This document shows, piece by piece, positions 13,280 through 49,350 of a stretch of DNA of 64,000 bases. The translations under genes and the position numbers were made by a program. The first letter of the stretch is position 1, and every line of letters starts with the position of its first letter. Under the pieces are notes generated by a model. The model saw only the letters and a list, made by a program, of their open reading frames with translations. It did not search any database and was not told the DNA's origin. Location: the IMG/VR virus record IMGVR_UViG_3300032213_001568, positions 46,527-110,526 of that record; one strand, written 5' to 3'. Origin of the DNA: a virus.

Positions 13280-14216
13280 TTCTCTTTTTGAAAAAGCGTT
13301 CTTTGAAACAAAAAGATTATCCGTTCAGGAAACACAAAGTGTCGGTGATATTATCCACCGAGTAAATGGCAGAAAGTCCGCAGCTTGAGTGTAACTGATA
13401 AACGATAATGGGCCGTGTATGGTCCTTAAATAAACTACGAAAGTAGGATAAAGTGGTCTCCCTCGTGTTGAGGAGACTGCGGTTTGAAACCCCGTAAGGG
13501 TGATTGAACTCGAGTACACAAGTGGGATATCACCACACCGTAAGTACCGAGGATAACTTCGTAGGGAAAATGGTAGGGTGACCTGGCAAAGTAGATTGTC
13601 AGGTTGAGTTCGGAAGAACGATAAGAATAACCCATAGGAACTCTGTAAGAAATGTGACCATCCAGTTACACTATTGCGGGTCCCAATATGATAGAGGACT
13701 TAAAACCGAAAGGTAAGATGGAGAACGAGTGGTGTCGCTACTATCCCTAAGGAAGACCTACCAAGGTCTCTTTATGAAGTAATCTTGAAATATGGAGGTG
13801 GGGACACTTCACGGAGTAGTTTAGTATTTCGTTTCTCAAAAGGAGACGGAGCTTACGTTGGACCACTACTCTGACACATCTACAACACAAACCTAAAATT
13901 ATTACAAAATAACAAAGGAAAAGTGTCCATCAGGTTTGAGTGAAAGGTGACTACATAGTAATGAGCTGTTCATTGCATACAGAGACCCCAAGTCAATGTG
14001 TATTGTTAAGAAAAACCTTTAGTCCCGCAAGGACGAACTGGGGTGGCAACCTCGGAAAGAGTTAAGTACTGATAGAGTAATTCAAACCTCAAGGAGTGGT
14101 ACACCTAAAATACCGTCACTAAGAAATACTACCCAAAAGGTGGTGGATACGAAGGGAAACAATAATCCTTCAAAAGTTTCTTAACATAAGCTGTAATCTC
14201 AGGCTTTTCTAATCTG

Positions 14217-15653: not shown

Positions 15654-16676
15654 ATGAAAAAAATTAAATTATTTCTCTTAACCCTTTTCGCATTCATTGG
15701 ATTGAGTGCTTCGTCACAAGTATTAACATCGTTTAATCTTGATGTAATCAACCCTGAAGGTTGTCCATACACTTTAATTGGAAACTACTATGGTGGTGGT
15801 ATCCAAGGAACGATAACTTTCTCATCACAACCTTTAGCAGGATATTATGTTTGTACAGTACCGGCGATTGACAGTTTGAATATTAGTATTTGTGTGGTTT
15901 CAGCGCCACCTTGTTTTGGTGAATCTTGTATAAATGAAGTTATATATCTTGGACCTGGACAAGGAGTTCAAACATTTACTGTTGTACTACAACCTCAAGA
16001 TATTGATGGGGATGGTTTCTTTGATAGTGTTGACTGTAACCCATTTGACCCAACTGTTTATCCTGGAGCACCTGAGTTGTGTGATGGTATTGATAATAAT
16101 TGTGATGGGATATTTGATTTAACACCATCAATTAGTATGTATTTTGTTCCTGACTCAATTGTTACTGAACCAAACTCAATATTCATTGTATGTCAAACAA
16201 CAAATGTTACTTCTTGGAATTGGAATTTTGGAAATGGTGTGACATCAAATACATCTTACCCAACTACAAATTACGATATTGATGGAACATACTCAGTATG
16301 TTTATATGGAACTTCATACGATGGATGTGTAGTTGATTCTTGTCTAACATTTACAATTGATTCACTTGGATGGACACCAGGAGGTGTTATGACTAACTAC
16401 ACTTTAAATATTGTACCTGAGTATACTGTTGGTGTGACTGAATTAACTAACAACGTTAAAGTTTGGCCAAATCCTGTGTTAGGTATTGTTAATATTAACA
16501 CACCATCAAATAGTGGAACATTAAGAATTATGTCTATTGACGGAAGATGTGTTTACCAACAAAAATATTTCACTAGCAACATTCAGTTTGATTCTGAAAC
16601 ATTAAGTGATGGAACTTATGTTATTACTCTTACTGACGATAGTGGTAAGTTTTACACAACAAGAATTATTAAATAA
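15654..16676 (+). CDS. Secreted protein with Ca-binding motif, PKD-like domain and T9SS type A sorting domain
   Basis: A 340-residue exported protein. Residues 1-22 are a signal peptide ([20 protein letters not shown]). Near residues 118-160 lies a thrombospondin-3/MopE-like motif ([28 protein letters not shown]). A PKD-like beta domain follows ([15 protein letters not shown]). Residues ~258-340 resemble the Por secretion type A C-terminal domain (VWPNPVLG from 270, then SIDGRCVY and [10 protein letters not shown]). Such domains direct proteins through the Bacteroidetes type IX system to the cell surface. The gene is monocistronic between terminators. A host-surface or adhesion role is inferred. 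Confidence 0.88.
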
Positions 16677-21418: not shown

Positions 21419-21589
21419 ATGAGCGACAAAACTAAATTTACAAGAACCTACGAAACGGAAGATACCATCGCTGTTTGGACTTATGATTTGGATAGGTTCA
21501 AGAACGGCCCGATATCTGTTGATATCAAATACAAATACGACCCTGACAGGAAACTTTCCAACAGGGAAAAATACTCAAAGAAAAAATGA
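21419..21589 (+). CDS. Small hypothetical protein (56 aa)
   Basis: The protein starts MSDKTKFTRTYETEDTIAVW and ends in a lysine-rich tail. Support comes from an upstream promoter with 20-nt spacing and a 4-base ATGA overlap with the HAD gene. Function unknown. Confidence 0.7.
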   Translation: MSDKTKFTRTYETEDTIAVWTYDLDRFKNGPISVDIKYKYDPDRKLSNREKYSKKK

Positions 21590-22158
21590 AAGTAATCTTT
21601 TTAGACCACGATGGAGTTATCTGTTTATCTGATAACTGGGGGTCACGATTTAAGAAACAAAAAAAGTATAGAAAAAAATTGAGTCAATCAGTAATGACAA
21701 TGCCTCTTGATGCTCGTTTTGATAACTTTGACAAGAAGGCAATCAAGGTATTGAATGAAATCTTGGAACAGACTGGTGCTGAAATCGTTGTATCTTCTGA
21801 TTGGAAAGTTTGGTGTTCAGTTGAGGAGATGGGTGATTACTACGAAAAACAAGGTATCATCAAACGACCAATTGATTTCACAACCAATACGATTGATGGT
21901 GACAAAGTAACTTGGTTCCGAAATTGGGATTTGGAAGGAACAAGAAGTGTTCAGATTCAAGAGTGGTTAAAGGAACATCCCGAAGTTACACATTGGGTTG
22001 CGATTGATGATTTGGAGATGGGAAAGACTGGACTACGTTACTCAATGGAATATGAACACGAATGGGGTTTAGATAACTTTGTTCATACACCTTTGAACAA
22101 TGAGGGTATCAAACAACTTGGGGTTAAAGAAAAGGTGTTATCCTTTTTGGAAGGGTAA
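21586..22158 (+). CDS. HAD-superfamily phosphatase, SAK/RNA-repair type
   Basis: A 190-residue HAD protein: motif I FLDHDGV (5-11), motif II VVSSDWK near 74-80, and an acidic motif AIDDLEM near 146. Layout and SSDWK resemble HAD domains described in 'Swiss army knife' RNA-repair proteins, which trim phosphate ends. The phage also has a ligase, kinase, cREC and 2H enzyme elsewhere in the window, so an RNA end-healing role is reasonable but unproven. Confidence 0.8.
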   Translation: MKVIFLDHDGVICLSDNWGSRFKKQKKYRKKLSQSVMTMPLDARFDNFDKKAIKVLNEILEQTGAEIVVSSDWKVWCSVEEMGDYYEKQGIIKRPIDFTTNTIDGDKVTWFRNWDLEGTRSVQIQEWLKEHPEVTHWVAIDDLEMGKTGLRYSMEYEHEWGLDNFVHTPLNNEGIKQLGVKEKVLSFLEG

Positions 22159-24047: not shown

Positions 24048-24070
24048 TCGTATCATCAAATATATAAGGA

Positions 24071-24108
24071 AACCCTGGACTACAAAAAAGTTCAGGGTTT
24101 TTTTTTTG
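24071..24108 (+). terminator. Terminator before the tRNA cluster
   Basis: AACCCTGGAC (24071-24080) pairs with GTTCAGGGTT (24090-24099), followed by ten Ts. Confidence 0.92.
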
Positions 24109-24133: not shown

Positions 24134-24204
24134 ACGTAAGTGGTGAAATGGTATCATAACTCTCTCCAAAAGAGTTGTTCGGGGTTCGAGTCCCTGCTTT
24201 CGTG
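24134..24204 (+). tRNA. tRNA-Trp(CCA)
   Basis: Anticodon arm ACTCT-CTCCAAA-AGAGT gives anticodon CCA. T-arm CGGGG-TTCGAGT-CCCTG. The acceptor stem ACGTAAG/CTTTCGT has one T-T mismatch. No CCA end is encoded. Confidence 0.82.
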
Positions 24205-24210
24205 CTAACA

Positions 24211-24287
24211 TTCTCACGTAGCTCAGTTGGCTTAGAGCATTTGTCTGATACACAAAAGGTCGTTGGTTCGATTCCAACCGTGAGAAC
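24211..24287 (+). tRNA. tRNA-Ile(GAT)
   Basis: Acceptor TTCTCAC/GTGAGAA, anticodon arm TTTGT-CTGATAC-ACAAA (GAT), T-arm GTTGG-TTCGATT-CCAAC. Confidence 0.92.
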
Positions 24288-24294
24288 TTAAATT

Positions 24295-24367
24295 GGTACC
24301 ATAGCTCAGTTGGTAGAGCAAAGGACTGAAAATCCTTGTGTCGGTGGTTCGAATCCACCTGGTACCA
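24295..24367 (+). tRNA. tRNA-Phe(GAA)
   Basis: Acceptor GGTACCA/TGGTACC, anticodon arm AAGGA-CTGAAAA-TCCTT (GAA), T-arm GGTGG-TTCGAAT-CCACC. Confidence 0.95.
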
Positions 24368-24368
24368 C

Positions 24369-24442
24369 GAGGTCCTGAATTAACAGGACAACCCCCACCT
24401 CCTATATGGCAGTCGGTCCGTTAATCCGACGAAGATGGGGTT
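24369..24442 (+). ncRNA. Structured, possibly pseudoknotted RNA between tRNAs
   Basis: GAGG (24369-24372) and TCCTG pair with CAGGA and CCTC (24398-24401). AACCCC (24390-24395), which lies in that loop, can pair with GGGGTT (24437-24442), giving a pseudoknot. An anticodon-like arm TCGGT-CCGTTAA-TCCGA (24413-24429) would read GTT, so a degenerate tRNA-Asn without a T-arm is an alternative reading. Confidence 0.5.
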
Positions 24443-24520
24443 TAAAAAAGTGTCTCGGTACGCTCTGACGAAAGTTAACGACGAGGTCTCGGTGGACAGA
24501 AGGCCTCTGATTCCACCCAA
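24443..24520 (+). ncRNA. Second structured RNA with H-type pseudoknot signal
   Basis: GAGGTC (24483-24488) can pair with GGCCTC (24502-24507), while GGTGGA (24491-24496) pairs with TCCACC (24512-24517). The interleaved order is that of an H-type pseudoknot. It fills the space between tRNA-like sequence and tRNA-Gly. Confidence 0.45.
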
Positions 24521-24523
24521 AAT

Positions 24524-24595
24524 GCGGTAGTCGTATAACGGTTATTACAGGGCCTTGCCAAGGCTCAGATAGCAGTTCAATTCTGCTTTACCGCT
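24524..24595 (+). tRNA. tRNA-Gly(GCC)
   Basis: Acceptor GCGGTAG/TTACCGC, anticodon arm GGGCC-TTGCCAA-GGCTC (GCC), T-arm AGCAG-TTCAATT-CTGCT. Confidence 0.92.
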
Positions 24596-24605
24596 CAAAG
24601 GGTCT

Positions 24606-24643
24606 GGGGGAGTCCCGCAAAAGGTATAAATAACCTGTCCCCC
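24606..24643 (+). ncRNA. Long hairpin between two tRNA-Gly genes
   Basis: GGGGGA (24606-24611) pairs with TCCCCC (24638-24643) and AGGT (24622-24625) with ACCT (24633-24636). It is not a tRNA and has no T-run. Confidence 0.45.
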
Positions 24644-24648
24644 TCCAC

Positions 24649-24722
24649 GAGGGTATCGCCTAGTAGGTATGGCATCACACTTCCAATGTGAAATAGGGTC
24701 GGTTCGAGACCGACTACCCTCT
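24649..24722 (+). tRNA. tRNA-Gly(TCC)
   Basis: Acceptor GAGGGTA/TACCCTC, anticodon arm TCACA-CTTCCAA-TGTGA (TCC), T-arm GTCGG-TTCGAGA-CCGAC. Confidence 0.95.
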
Positions 24723-24728
24723 CTTTTT

Positions 24729-24801
24729 GGCTCCATGGTTGAATGGCTACAATGCCGGCTTGTCACGCCGTGTGGTACGGGTTCGAATCCCGTTGGAGCC
24801 G
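24729..24801 (+). tRNA. tRNA-Asp(GTC)
   Basis: Acceptor GGCTCCA/TGGAGCC, anticodon loop TTGTCAC (GTC) in a GC-rich stem, T-arm ACGGG-TTCGAAT-CCCGT. Confidence 0.93.
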
Positions 24802-24818
24802 CTAAAGAGGAATAACTT

Positions 24819-24854
24819 GCGTAGGTGCCTCAGGGGACTGCAGCCCCACTACGC
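24819..24854 (+). ncRNA. 36-nt two-helix RNA between tRNAs
   Basis: GCGTAG (24819-24824) pairs with CTACGC (24849-24854) and encloses GGGG/CCCC (24833-24836/24844-24847) with a 7-nt loop ACTGCAG. It looks like a tRNA reduced to its acceptor and anticodon arms. Confidence 0.45.
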
Positions 24855-24860
24855 TCCATA

Positions 24861-24933
24861 TTGCCCCTTCATCTAAGGACAGGATATCTGATTTTGATTC
24901 AGAAAATGGTGGTTTGAATCCATCAGGGGCAAC
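24861..24933 (+). tRNA. tRNA-Gln(TTG)
   Basis: Acceptor TTGCCCC/GGGGCAA, anticodon arm TCTGA-TTTTGAT-TCAGA (TTG). The T-loop TTTGAAT has T instead of C. A T-run follows. Confidence 0.92.
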
Positions 24934-25863: not shown

Positions 25864-26108
25864 CTAAAGTACACACTACGCTACCCATTGACCAGCGTCC
25901 CAGGGTGTGTCTTTTACGGTGTTGTTCCCTTGAGAAAGGAGGTATTGATAAAAAAGGAAGTTGTTAAAAGTAACAATATGCTTACAACACAGAGGTTCTC
26001 AACCTCAAACTATTAGTGAACTTTGGTACCCATACCGCTGACGATGGGCTAAGTAAGATACAATTCCGTGTTGCGGGGAGTAGAATGCCGAAGAGCTGAT
26101 AGTAAGAT
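25864..26108 (+). ncRNA. Structured non-coding stretch between tRNA-like genes
   Basis: There is no gene here. Visible hairpins are ACACAC/GTGTGT (25871-25876/25905-25910) enclosing ACGCT/AGCGT, GAGGTT-CTC-AACCTC (about 25990-26006), and CCCAT/ATGGG (about 26029-26049). It is probably part of one long processed transcript from the promoter at 25690. Confidence 0.45.
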
Positions 26109-26175: not shown

Positions 26176-26392
26176 CACGTTCTGACTAATCATCAGATAG
26201 TATGTCCCATACGATGAGAAATGGTATGATAACCATAGGGAAGAGTTGAAGGTTTGTATATATATTACCTTCTAGTTGACTACTAAGGTCGGTAAAACCC
26301 ATCACGAAGGGGAGCAAGACAGTTTATTCCTAACTCAGCAATGAGGACAGCCATAACACCTGTAAGTTGGATAGATAAGGGTGTTTTAATAT
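26176..26392 (+). ncRNA. Structured non-coding stretch with several hairpins
   Basis: There is no gene here. Hairpins include GTATG-TCC-CATAC near 26199-26211, TGGT/ACCA near 26223-26236, GAAGGT/ACCTTC near 26249-26274, and AACACC/GGTGTT (26355-26360/26380-26385) followed by a T-rich stretch that could terminate transcription. Confidence 0.4.
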
Positions 26393-26457
26393 AGTCAGGT
26401 AGTGAGATAGGGAAACACAACTCTCTTTGAAAGAGAGTGATTCACAGGTTCAATTAA
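26393..26457 (+). pseudogene. Truncated tRNA-Ser(TGA)-like gene
   Basis: The acceptor 5' strand AGTCAGG matches the two upstream tRNA-like genes, and the anticodon arm CTCTC-TTTGAAA-GAGAG reads TGA. The T-arm begins ACAGG-TTCAATT but the pairing strand and acceptor 3' strand are missing: AT-rich DNA and a small reading frame follow directly. The break falls exactly in the T-loop. Confidence 0.55.
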
Positions 26458-29818: not shown

Positions 29819-30110
29819 AAACAAACCTTACAGAAGACGGATTAGCACCGTTGAAAGAAACCTTGGCTTCACCGTGGAGTAGCTACCACAACCGAAGTTT
29901 AAATGCCCCAAGGTAAGCTGTGATGGACCCTGCTCTGTGTGGCCACGCAACAGGTGAACAGTAAATTATGTTCAGTCAAATCTACAACTACGGTGAACGT
30001 AGATGGTTTGTTAAAATTAAATAACCAACTTTAAAAAGGGCGCTTCCTGAAATATTGGCTCGCTGGGCCCGAGTTTGTTAAACCCCACTCACAATGTGGG
30101 GTTTTTTATT
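29819..30110 (+). ncRNA. Structured RNA downstream of tRNA-Tyr with terminator
   Basis: There is no gene here. The ~290-nt stretch is more GC-rich than coding DNA and ends at the terminator 30080-30110. CTACAAC...GTAGA and GGGC...GCCC pairings are visible near 29980-30070, but I cannot derive a full fold. It is probably processed from the tRNA transcript that starts at 29506. Confidence 0.5.
30080..30110 (+). terminator. Terminator of the third tRNA cluster
   Basis: AACCCCAC (30081-30088) pairs with GTGGGGTT (30096-30103), then Ts. The next promoter's TTG starts in its tail. Confidence 0.92.
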
Positions 30111-46520: not shown

Positions 46521-46534
46521 TTTTTGTATCTTTG
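46504..46534 (+). promoter_or_regulatory. Leaderless-type promoter of the RNA ligase
   Basis: CTG (variant) at 46504-46506, 20 nt, TATCTTTG at 46527-46534, then 4 nt to the ATG at 46539. Confidence 0.65.
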
Positions 46535-46538
46535 TCAA

Positions 46539-47600
46539 ATGAATGAAGTTCTAAACAAATATTTTGAGGAAGGGTTGGTGTATAAACAAGTGCACCCAAC
46601 TCTTCCTTTGACTATATGGAACTACACTGAAAAGGTTCAGTACGAAGGTTTATGGGATGATGTAACTTTACAAACTCGTGGGTTAGTTACCGACGACAAA
46701 GGTAATGTTGTTGCTCGTCCATTTAGAAAGTTCTTCAACATAGAAGAGGGAAGACACACCCCAACTTCTGAGTTTGATGTCTATGAAAAGATGGATGGCT
46801 CACTTGGTATATTGTTCAACTATGAAGGACAATGGGTGTTAGCCACTCGTGGTTCCTTTGCTTCTGACCAATCATTAAAAGGTTTCTTCATGTTACAAAA
46901 ATATGACTTCAAGAAACTTCACAAAGATTACACTTACTTATTTGAAATAATATATGACGATAACCGTATAGTTGTTAAGTATGACTATGAGGACTTGGTA
47001 TTACTTGGTATGATAAATACTGAAACTGGGTATGAGGTTGATTTGTATGGTGAGGGAGTTGATGTTAGATTGAAGAACATGGTTAACAATCTTGATTTCA
47101 AAGTTGTCAAAAAATACGATGGAATTCGGGATTATACCGAATTGAAGGATAAAGTTGAACAAAACGCTGAAGGATTTGTTGTTCGTTTTACTAACGGAGA
47201 TAGAATGAAAGTTAAGGGTGTGGAGTATCTTCGTCTTCATAAACTCATGACTAATGTGTCTACCACTTCTGTTTGGGAAATGTTGAGTGAGGACAAAGAT
47301 GTGTTGGAGATATTGAAGGATGTTCCTGACGAATTCTATAAGAAGATAAAGATGTATGTTCAGGAGTTAAGATATAACCACTATCAGTTTGGAGAACGTG
47401 CCGGTAAGATATATCAGTATTTCAGATATGGTAAGTATGGGGACAGAGACCCTGAACCATCAAAGAAAGAGTTTGCGTTACACTTACAAGAATGTGATAC
47501 TCACCCAAAGATAAAGGCATTATGTTTTATGATGTGGGATGGAAAGAGTACTGATAAAGTAATATGGAATTATTTAAAACCCGAATATAAAAAGTTATGA
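46539..47600 (+). CDS. T4 Rnl1-like RNA ligase
   Basis: A 353-residue ATP-dependent RNA ligase. I chose the ATG at 46539, set by the -7 box. The nucleotidyl-lysine motif KMDGSLG has K84; TRGLVTD and ARPFRKFFN precede it as in T4 Rnl1, and AEGFVVRF with a downstream K-x-K (RMKVKG) forms motifs IV-V. It seals 5'-phosphate and 3'-OH RNA ends; T4 Rnl1 repairs host tRNA cut by the PrrC anticodon nuclease. With kinase and phosphoesterases beside it, the same use is likely. Confidence 0.93.
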   Translation: MNEVLNKYFEEGLVYKQVHPTLPLTIWNYTEKVQYEGLWDDVTLQTRGLVTDDKGNVVARPFRKFFNIEEGRHTPTSEFDVYEKMDGSLGILFNYEGQWVLATRGSFASDQSLKGFFMLQKYDFKKLHKDYTYLFEIIYDDNRIVVKYDYEDLVLLGMINTETGYEVDLYGEGVDVRLKNMVNNLDFKVVKKYDGIRDYTELKDKVEQNAEGFVVRFTNGDRMKVKGVEYLRLHKLMTNVSTTSVWEMLSEDKDVLEILKDVPDEFYKKIKMYVQELRYNHYQFGERAGKIYQYFRYGKYGDRDPEPSKKEFALHLQECDTHPKIKALCFMMWDGKSTDKVIWNYLKPEYKKL

Positions 47601-47899: not shown

Positions 47900-48580
47900 A
47901 TGTTGAAAGTAACCTTAATATCAGACACGCACACTAAAGAACGAAATGTTCTTGTGAATGGTGGTGACTTGATTTTACATAGCGGTGACGTTATGAACTC
48001 AGGTTATAATTGGGAAGATTTGTATGACTTCTTAAAATGGTTCAGTGAGTTACCATATAAGATGAAGGTATTCATTCCTGGTAATCACGACAGATACATT
48101 GAAGACAAACCATTTGACGCTTGGAAGATGATTCGTGAGTTTAACGACAAAGGTGTTGTTTGTTTGATTGATGACTTCGTTGAGTTTGAGGGATTGAAAA
48201 TCTATGGTAGTCCTTGGCAACCTGAGTTCTACAATTGGGCATTCAACCTACCACGTAATGGTAAGGAGTTGGAAGAGAAGTGGGCAAACATTCCTGACGA
48301 TACTGACATCTTGTTAACACACGGACCAGCTTGGGGTATCTTGGATACCGTAGTCAATCGTCGTGATGTTAATCTTGGATGTGAAATGTTAACCAAACGA
48401 TTGGAGACATTACACCCACTAATCCATAGTTGTGGTCACATCCACACAGGTTATGGGTATGTTGAAAAGAACGGAACACACTTCTTCAACGCATCTATCT
48501 TGGATGAGCGTTACAGTCACAACCAAAAACCTTTTGATATCACCATTGATGTTGAAAATAAAAAAATAGAAATACTATGA
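47900..48580 (+). CDS. Second calcineurin-like metallophosphoesterase (MPPED-type)
   Basis: A 226-residue enzyme with SDTHTKE (8-14), HSGDVMNSG, IPGNHDRYI, LTHGPAWGILD and CGHIHTGYGY. The TxGPxxxIxD and GHxHxGYG motifs are those of the MPPED1/2-like subgroup, which cleave phosphodiesters. It differs clearly from the 43981 enzyme. Early expression from a leaderless promoter; its substrate may be cyclic nucleotides or RNA ends. Confidence 0.92.
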   Translation: MLKVTLISDTHTKERNVLVNGGDLILHSGDVMNSGYNWEDLYDFLKWFSELPYKMKVFIPGNHDRYIEDKPFDAWKMIREFNDKGVVCLIDDFVEFEGLKIYGSPWQPEFYNWAFNLPRNGKELEEKWANIPDDTDILLTHGPAWGILDTVVNRRDVNLGCEMLTKRLETLHPLIHSCGHIHTGYGYVEKNGTHFFNASILDERYSHNQKPFDITIDVENKKIEIL

Positions 48581-49350
48581 TTGAAAAATTAGTTAAAAAC
48601 AGAACTCCATATCTTGGGAAAATGGTATTGAAGTTTGAGAGACATCCGTATTACACCAGTAGTCAAGATGGGAAGTTAAATAAAGTTCACATCAATCTTG
48701 GATTTACTAAGTTGGTGACTAGGTTCAAACCAAAACAGGTTATAGAAGGTTACTCAAATATTGACCCCAAGAAGATTGAACTGATTGAGAAATACACTGG
48801 TGGTGTTATTGGAACTCACACTTTTGGAAAGGATGACGAATATACTTTGGATAATTCGTTTTTGACAAAGGATGGTGTGTATATTGGTGATATTGATACT
48901 GCTTGGTGGTATTACATTAACAAATTCTATGTTTGTAAAGAATATCCTCACGGAGTTGCTATCAAACTTAAAAGTTATGGACCAACTATTGTATTGAAAA
49001 ATTCAATTGAAGATGAGTATGAGAACTTTGTAACAGAACAGATTGAGAGTGATAATGTTGAAGGGTTCCACGGATATACTCATCGTGGAGGTTCAACATT
49101 CAAGATTGGAGACAGATTGTTTGATGCTAAATATATACCAGTTGTTGATGATTATGATAGAAAAGAGTTTGAGGGGTATTGGAAAGAATATGCAAAGTCA
49201 TACTCAAAGGCTGACGACTTTGATAAAAAATCAATTTATAGTGATGGAATCAGGGCGGTAATACCGTTTAACCGTAGAGGTAAACAAGTCATTAAAGATT
49301 GGGACCAAGCGAGACAAGCAGCGATTAACATATCAAAAGATTTATCGTAA
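48577..49350 (+). CDS. Hypothetical protein (257 aa)
   Basis: Unrecognised. An alpha/beta protein with aromatic-rich stretches (IDTAWWYYINKFYVC; GFHGYTHRGGSTFKIGDRLFD). It overlaps the phosphoesterase stop by ATGA and is coupled to the next small gene, so it belongs to the operon that runs to about 51.99 kb. Confidence 0.75.
   Translation: MIEKLVKNRTPYLGKMVLKFERHPYYTSSQDGKLNKVHINLGFTKLVTRFKPKQVIEGYSNIDPKKIELIEKYTGGVIGTHTFGKDDEYTLDNSFLTKDGVYIGDIDTAWWYYINKFYVCKEYPHGVAIKLKSYGPTIVLKNSIEDEYENFVTEQIESDNVEGFHGYTHRGGSTFKIGDRLFDAKYIPVVDDYDRKEFEGYWKEYAKSYSKADDFDKKSIYSDGIRAVIPFNRRGKQVIKDWDQARQAAINISKDLS

What the first reader, a model, noticed from the sequence alone, without database searches (positions are those of the whole stretch)
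24369..24854. tRNA genes interleaved with small, possibly pseudoknotted RNAs
The gaps between tRNAs hold compact structures: an interlocked GAGG/CCTC and AACCCC/GGGGTT element, an H-type pseudoknot (GAGGTC/GGCCTC and GGTGGA/TCCACC), a GGGGGA/TCCCCC hairpin and a 36-nt acceptor-plus-anticodon-like mini-RNA. They look like reduced tRNAs or tRNA mimics, perhaps decoys for tRNA nucleases or small RNAs liberated by tRNA processing.
Basis: partly seen in the sequence, partly recalled or inferred. Interest (0 to 1): 0.7.

Follow-up and report, generated by a model that had tools for sequence, protein, structure and literature searches.

The report
Pseudoknotted small RNAs between phage tRNAs
The gaps between tRNA genes in this uncultured phage hold small folded RNAs, several tied into pseudoknots, that many related phages have kept nearly unchanged while the tRNAs around them were swapped, so they are probably RNA genes of their own, cut out by the tRNA-processing machinery, with a job not yet known.

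Summary
The window lies in an uncultured phage, and its tRNA gaps hold four elements.

A (24369-24443) is a true pseudoknot: all four helices, including both interlocked ones, covary across 42 sequences.

C (24597-24648) has the same layout but no relatives were found, so it is weakly supported.

Relatives' tRNA gaps hold more families of this layout (G, H). No Rfam match for A-D or G; no clear match in bacterial genomes (A, B) or GenBank phages (A, B, D).

A sits exactly at a tRNA or tRNA-like 3' end in 74 of 74 contexts; B lies 3-7 nt before a tRNA; D lies between tRNAs. In most relatives compared they are better conserved than neighbouring tRNAs. Each record holding A, D or G has one copy.

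They are not reduced tRNAs. Best explanation: phage RNA genes excised by tRNA processing, acting in trans. A new 5'-cleaving ribozyme is not excluded for A.

The parts
24134..24933 (+). tRNA array Trp-Ile-Phe-[A-B]-Gly(GCC)-[C]-Gly(TCC)-Asp-[D]-Gln, probably one transcript (terminator-like hairpin before it at 24066-24104, T-run after it)
   Evidence: the single-transcript reading is inferred
24369..24443 (+). Element A, ~75-nt pseudoknotted RNA starting right after discriminator A24367 and C24368 of tRNA-Phe. P1 24369-24373/24397-24401; inner hairpin 24374-24377/24384-24387; P2 24390-24395/24437-24442; P4 24412-24416/24426-24430
   Evidence: 59 unique sequences in 74 contexts
24450..24518 (+). 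Element B, ~69-nt two-hairpin RNA. Hairpin 1: 24453-24457/24482-24486, 24461-24462/24479-24480 and 24466-24469/24474-24477. Hairpin 2: 24491-24496/24512-24517 and 24497-24500/24506-24509. Ends 5 nt before tRNA-Gly
   Evidence: 46 unique sequences
24597..24648 (+). Element C, putative pseudoknot of the same layout: S1 24600-24602/24614-24616, S2 24606-24611/24638-24643, hairpin 24622-24625/24633-24636
   Evidence: no homologue found, so the structure is not tested by covariation
24804..24859 (+). Element D, ~56-nt pseudoknot: S1 24807-24810/24828-24831, S2 24819-24824/24849-24854, hairpin 24833-24836/24844-24847; sits between tRNA-Asp and tRNA-Gln

Best explanation
A, B and D (and probably C) are small structured RNA genes of the phage, single-copy where this was counted, embedded in the polycistronic tRNA transcript. 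Tested here: conserved folds, a fixed register against tRNA ends, one copy per record for A, D and G, and conservation above that of flanking tRNAs in most relatives compared. Inferred: the tRNA 3'-processing activity that frees the upstream tRNA sets the 5' end of A and D, RNase P cutting the downstream tRNA sets the 3' end of B and D, and the tight folds resist exonucleases, so that stable ~50-75-nt RNAs accumulate during infection. Most likely (the least certain step) they act in trans as structured RNAs that bind a protein or ligand rather than as antisense RNAs, because their unpaired loops and junctions are conserved while helix sequences drift. The target is unknown.
For: Covariation in A, B, D and the sister family G. 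Register: A begins at the same position after the tRNA acceptor stem in 69 of 74 contexts by ARAGORN, one more by Rfam, and the last 4 by reading the sequence (tRNA-like acceptor and T-loop); its downstream distance varies from 1 to over 500 nt. B lies 3-7 nt upstream of a tRNA in 54 of 65 contexts (mostly Gly); D lies within 2 nt of the next tRNA in 26 of 29. Copy number: A in 14, D in 10 and G in 8 of 30 phage records, one copy in every record that has it. Conservation: against L001, L006 and L008, A/B/D are 87-100% identical to the window while the flanking tRNA-Phe and tRNA-Gln are 63-74%, so tRNAs are replaced around them. No match to the element-B pattern in 84,980 prokaryotic species genomes, and only chance-level partial hits for A.
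Against: No transcript data: nothing shows that the RNAs are cut out, accumulate or act in trans. A is next to tRNA-Phe in 60 of 74 contexts, which could mean a local role. In some relatives (e.g. L003) a flanking tRNA is as well conserved as the elements. Covariation counts include related sequences, so the number of independent events is lower than the cell counts. B was not counted per whole record except in the window's own (1 copy).
Confidence: 0.5

Rival explanations
1. Element A is a new self-cleaving ribozyme, or another cis-acting tRNA 3'-end maturation element: it cuts between C74 of the tRNA and its own G1, as theta ribozymes do in gut phages.
For: Exact register at the tRNA or tRNA-like 3' end in all 74 contexts; invariant G1 beginning P1; compact pseudoknot with many invariant unpaired bases (junction ATGGCA, P4 loop, AAG before P2); hairpin-less variants keep that core while P2 is replaced entirely (L271, L289, L263, L284). 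Theta ribozymes fill the same niche (PMC10879173). The phage encodes RNA-ligase and RNA-repair domains.
Against: Most tRNAs in the arrays have no such element, and each record with A has one copy. No match to any Rfam ribozyme. C74 follows the discriminator in 1442 of 1463 tRNAs with or without A, so it is not special to A. Unlike theta ribozymes, A was never seen away from a tRNA-like end.
Confidence: 0.2
2. The elements are nuclease-resistant spacers or folding insulators that keep long tRNA transcripts correctly folded or protect trailers, with no function after excision.
For: Compact pseudoknots lying between tRNAs; several unrelated sequence families share one layout (A, D, G, H).
Against: Primary sequence, including loops, is conserved beyond what an insulator needs; most gaps in the same arrays are a few nt long and do without; one copy of each family per record.
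Confidence: 0.13
3. They are tRNA mimics or decoys for host anticodon nucleases or tRNA-processing enzymes.
For: Location among tRNAs; stacked S1+S2 of 10-12 bp could imitate an acceptor/T-arm minihelix; D often ends S2-UCCA (11 of 21); the phage carries RNA-repair proteins.
Against: No tRNA-model match and no T-arm motif; hairpin loops are not anticodon loops; the CCA-like end of D is not kept (UCUA, UCAA, UGCA, UCCG, UCUU, UCAU also occur); B has a different two-hairpin form.
Confidence: 0.08
4. They are remnants of tRNA genes or chance folds in spacer DNA.
For: Element C has no relatives and 3 of 60 shuffles fold as well.
Against: Covariation, near-invariance and recurrence in many phages for A, B and D; no tRNA similarity.
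Confidence: 0.02

Closest known systems
Theta ribozymes (minimal HDV-like ribozymes next to phage tRNAs; Kienbeck et al. 2024, PMC10879173)
   Same: Small pseudoknotted RNAs of tailed phages placed exactly at tRNA 3' ends, with tRNAs that mostly lack an encoded CCA
   Different: Element A has a 5-bp first helix, no P3 between P2 and P1, an extra hairpin between P1 and P2 in most members, and no conserved cytosine at the catalytic position; no cleavage shown; always next to a tRNA-like end
3' external transcribed spacer of leuZ in E. coli (3'ETS-leuZ, 53-nt sRNA sponge; described in PMC8166272)
   Same: A functional small RNA excised from the spacer of a tRNA transcript
   Different: That one acts on other sRNAs as a sponge; these are pseudoknots with conserved loops and lie between tRNAs of a phage
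Stable non-tRNA RNAs of the phage T4 tRNA cluster (bands C and D; recalled from general knowledge, not read here)
   Same: Small RNAs of unknown function encoded within a phage tRNA array
   Different: No sequence similarity found in the GenBank phage collection; structures not compared
C4 antisense RNA of phages P1 and P7 (listed in the references of PMC11143913 as an RNase P substrate)
   Same: Phage small RNA whose precursor is cut by RNase P
   Different: C4 is an antisense RNA and not part of a tRNA array with pseudoknots

Membership tests
HDV-like / theta ribozyme | Cleavage-site G1 directly at the tRNA 3' end | tested here: met
   Element A only: invariant G directly after discriminator + C74 in 74 of 74 contexts
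HDV-like / theta ribozyme | About 7-bp P1 starting at G1 (feature from general knowledge) | tested here: not met
   P1 of A is 5 bp; the sixth base opens another hairpin. In D the first helix is 4 bp and starts about 5 nt after the discriminator
HDV-like / theta ribozyme | P3 hairpin between the 5' strand of P2 and the 3' strand of P1 | tested here: not met
   0-1 nt between these strands in A
HDV-like / theta ribozyme | Invariant catalytic cytosine first in J4/2 (PMC10879173) | tested here: not met
   The base closing P4 is U in 40 of 42 sequences, the next is G or C
HDV-like / theta ribozyme | Self-cleavage in Mg2+ | not testable with these tools
   Needs biochemistry
H-type pseudoknot | Two crossing helices, both supported by covariation | tested here: met
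   A, G, D. Not met for B; C untested
tRNA or tRNA-like mimic | Match to tRNA model, or T-arm motif | tested here: not met
   No RF00005 match at E<=1 inside A-D; 0 of 147 members carry GTTCRANNC
Any described Rfam 15 family | Covariance-model match | tested here: not met
   None for A-D at E<=1; none for a family G member
Excised tRNA-spacer sRNA (3'ETS-leuZ kind) | Encoded between or after tRNAs in one transcript | tested here: inconclusive
   Position between tRNAs is certain; no + strand terminator-like or promoter-like site inside the array, but the transcript itself was not observed
Excised tRNA-spacer sRNA (3'ETS-leuZ kind) | Discrete stable RNA in vivo acting in trans | not testable with these tools
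   No RNA-seq available

The most novel reading that the evidence does not exclude
Element A, with its hairpin-less variants, is a new class of self-cleaving or tRNA-end-cutting RNA that releases the 3' end (C74) of phage tRNAs and tRNA-like RNAs, unrelated in fold to HDV-like ribozymes, and D/G/H are sister classes doing related jobs.
Probability: 0.15. Interest if true: 0.88.

Novelty: new variant of a known kind. Interest (0 to 1): 0.6.

Why it matters
It adds several previously unlisted families of pseudoknotted RNAs to phage biology, with defined members, structures and register, all tied to tRNA ends. Their exact placement, and a constraint often above that of the neighbouring tRNAs, suggest that phage tRNA arrays also carry other RNA genes. 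They give concrete constructs for testing whether these are trans-acting RNAs or a second kind of tRNA-processing RNA beside theta ribozymes.

Tried and rejected
Theta/HDV-like ribozyme membership: rejected on helix layout and missing catalytic C (PMC10879173). Hammerhead core in B (CTGACGA...): no second core strand; rejected by reading. Anti-Shine-Dalgarno mimic in A (CACCTCC): only in the GAGG subset, others read CACTCCC, so not conserved. Kissing between the two hairpin loops of A (TTAA/TTAA): not kept in all variants, not claimed. Palindromic loops (CTGCAG in D, GGCC/CGCG in B) as dimer sites: seen, but B has several non-palindromic variants; not claimed. Relatives of C: none by nhmmer. 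GenBank phages: only chance matches for A+B, none for D. Bacterial genomes: B pattern 0 hits, A pattern 11 partial hits with best E about 0.01, judged chance. Literature searches for an earlier description of such spacer RNAs found only theta ribozymes and tRNA-spacer sponges. A first fuzzy-regex script timed out.

Full report
WHAT THE WINDOW IS. The window is part of a 110.5-kb uncultured virus record with 15 tRNAs, a GOLLD RNA at 13812-14205, a near-threshold freshwater-1 RNA at 29919-29980, and genes including a T4 Rnl1-like RNA ligase, a HAD_SAK RNA-repair domain and a Tad6-like Thoeris inhibitor. A protein at 15654-16676 carries a Por_Secre_tail domain, which points to a Bacteroidota host (inference). 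The array 24134-24933 holds seven tRNAs; a terminator-like hairpin precedes it and a T-run follows.

FINDING RELATIVES. Two proteins just after the array brought in 56 and 26 loci; in about two dozen of them the same array is present with the same gap elements. Iterated profile searches of the held loci gave 59 unique A, 46 unique B and 17 unique D sequences. Scans of 84,980 prokaryotic species genomes found nothing for B and only short partial matches for A.

STRUCTURE. For A, the interlocked helices P1 and P2 plus the inner hairpin and P4 are 98.6-100% paired in 42 distinct sequences; P1 changes from GGAGT/ACTCC to GAGGT/ACCTC and GAAGT/ACTTC, and sliding partners by one column drops pairing from 99.5% to 43-53%. 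Hairpin-less variants in L271, L289, L263 and L284 keep P1, the ATGGCA-like junction, the TCCGTTAA loop and the AAG before P2, while P2 is replaced by unrelated pairs such as TTTTACACT/AGTGTAAAA. For D, S2 and the hairpin covary, and the pseudoknot helix GAGG/CCTC becomes GTGG/CCAC in four relatives. C (24597-24648) can fold in the same layout but stands alone.

A WIDER CLASS. A scan of 127 tRNA-tRNA gaps of 30-75 nt for an H-type pseudoknot spanning the gap found 24 that at most 1 of 60 shuffles equalled, where about 4 would be expected. They include new families: G (48 nt; all three helices covary, 11 pairs changed on both sides) and H (three sequences). A, D, G, H and C share one layout: tRNA, first helix strand, second helix strand, first helix closing, a hairpin, second helix closing, then usually a tRNA. 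Whether this is common descent or convergence cannot be told.

REGISTER AND COPY NUMBER. A starts at the same position after the acceptor stem in 69 of 74 contexts by ARAGORN (60 Phe, 7 Asn, 2 Gly). Rfam finds the tRNA in a further one (L252). The remaining four (L233, L256, L216, L222) are preceded by tRNA-like sequences with acceptor and T-loop that end at the same position, read by eye, with a possible one-base ambiguity in L216 and L222. Downstream distance varies widely, so the coupling is to the upstream RNA. B is coupled to the downstream tRNA (3-7 nt in 54 of 65); D to the downstream tRNA in 26 of 29, and in most also to the upstream one. In 30 records, most of them large, A, G and D were found in 14, 8 and 10, always once. 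In 1463 tRNAs of these phages C follows the discriminator in 1442, but only 127 encode CCA, so the tRNA end is probably at C74 and A begins at base 75 (inference).

CONSTRAINT. Compared with L001, L006 and L008, A, B and D are 87-100% identical to the window while tRNA-Phe and tRNA-Gln beside them are 63-74%. In other relatives, such as L003, single flanking tRNAs are equally conserved. Low values for L070 (B) and L118 in that table reflect absence or reversed orientation and carry no information. The elements are therefore not tRNA remnants; they stay while tRNAs around them are exchanged.

WHAT THEY MOST LIKELY ARE. Small RNA genes, single-copy where counted, excised by tRNA processing. The excision, stability and trans action are inferred. 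The chief rival for A is a cis-acting tRNA 3'-end element, possibly a ribozyme, because of its exact register; theta ribozymes in gut phages fill the same place (PMC10879173). Membership in that family fails on P1 length, the missing P3 and the missing catalytic C. Single copy per record weakens but does not exclude a processing role.

LIMITS. No transcript data; covariation counts are not corrected for relatedness; the kinship of C with family G is a guess from layout; prevalence figures are lower bounds; hosts are unknown.

Noticed in passing
window 26010-26106 (and L003 8126 on): About 97-nt conserved structured-looking RNA, also found between tRNA-Leu and tRNA-His in relatives, with an outer stem that changes on both sides (CTTTGG/CCGAAG to CTCAAG/CTTGAG). 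No Rfam match.
   Followed up: partly
window 26177-26400: A 224-base stretch without a long ORF that is 97-100% identical in many relatives; probably another conserved RNA.
   Followed up: no
L003 11564-11682, L018 11497-11613, L077 11320-11435: About 117-nt conserved spacer between tRNA-Met and tRNA-Glu that looks structured.
   Followed up: no
window 13812-14205: GOLLD RNA (321 bits), a large RNA whose homo-oligomeric structure was solved by cryo-EM (PMC12286853).
   Followed up: no
window 29919-29980: freshwater-1 RNA just below its Rfam cut-off (69.8 vs 72 bits), after a tRNA-Tyr.
   Followed up: no
all held loci: 1442 of 1463 tRNA genes carry C right after the discriminator but only 127 encode CCA; these phages seem to encode C74 only.
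   Followed up: partly
L222 about 2637-2758 and L216 (minus strand), just before element A: Unusual tRNA-like or tmRNA-like RNA with acceptor and T-loop but no normal anticodon arm, flush with element A; no Rfam match in L222.
   Followed up: partly
window 46524-47600, 21586-22158, 48577-49350: T4 Rnl1-like RNA ligase, HAD_SAK RNA-repair domain and Tad6-like Thoeris inhibitor.
   Followed up: no
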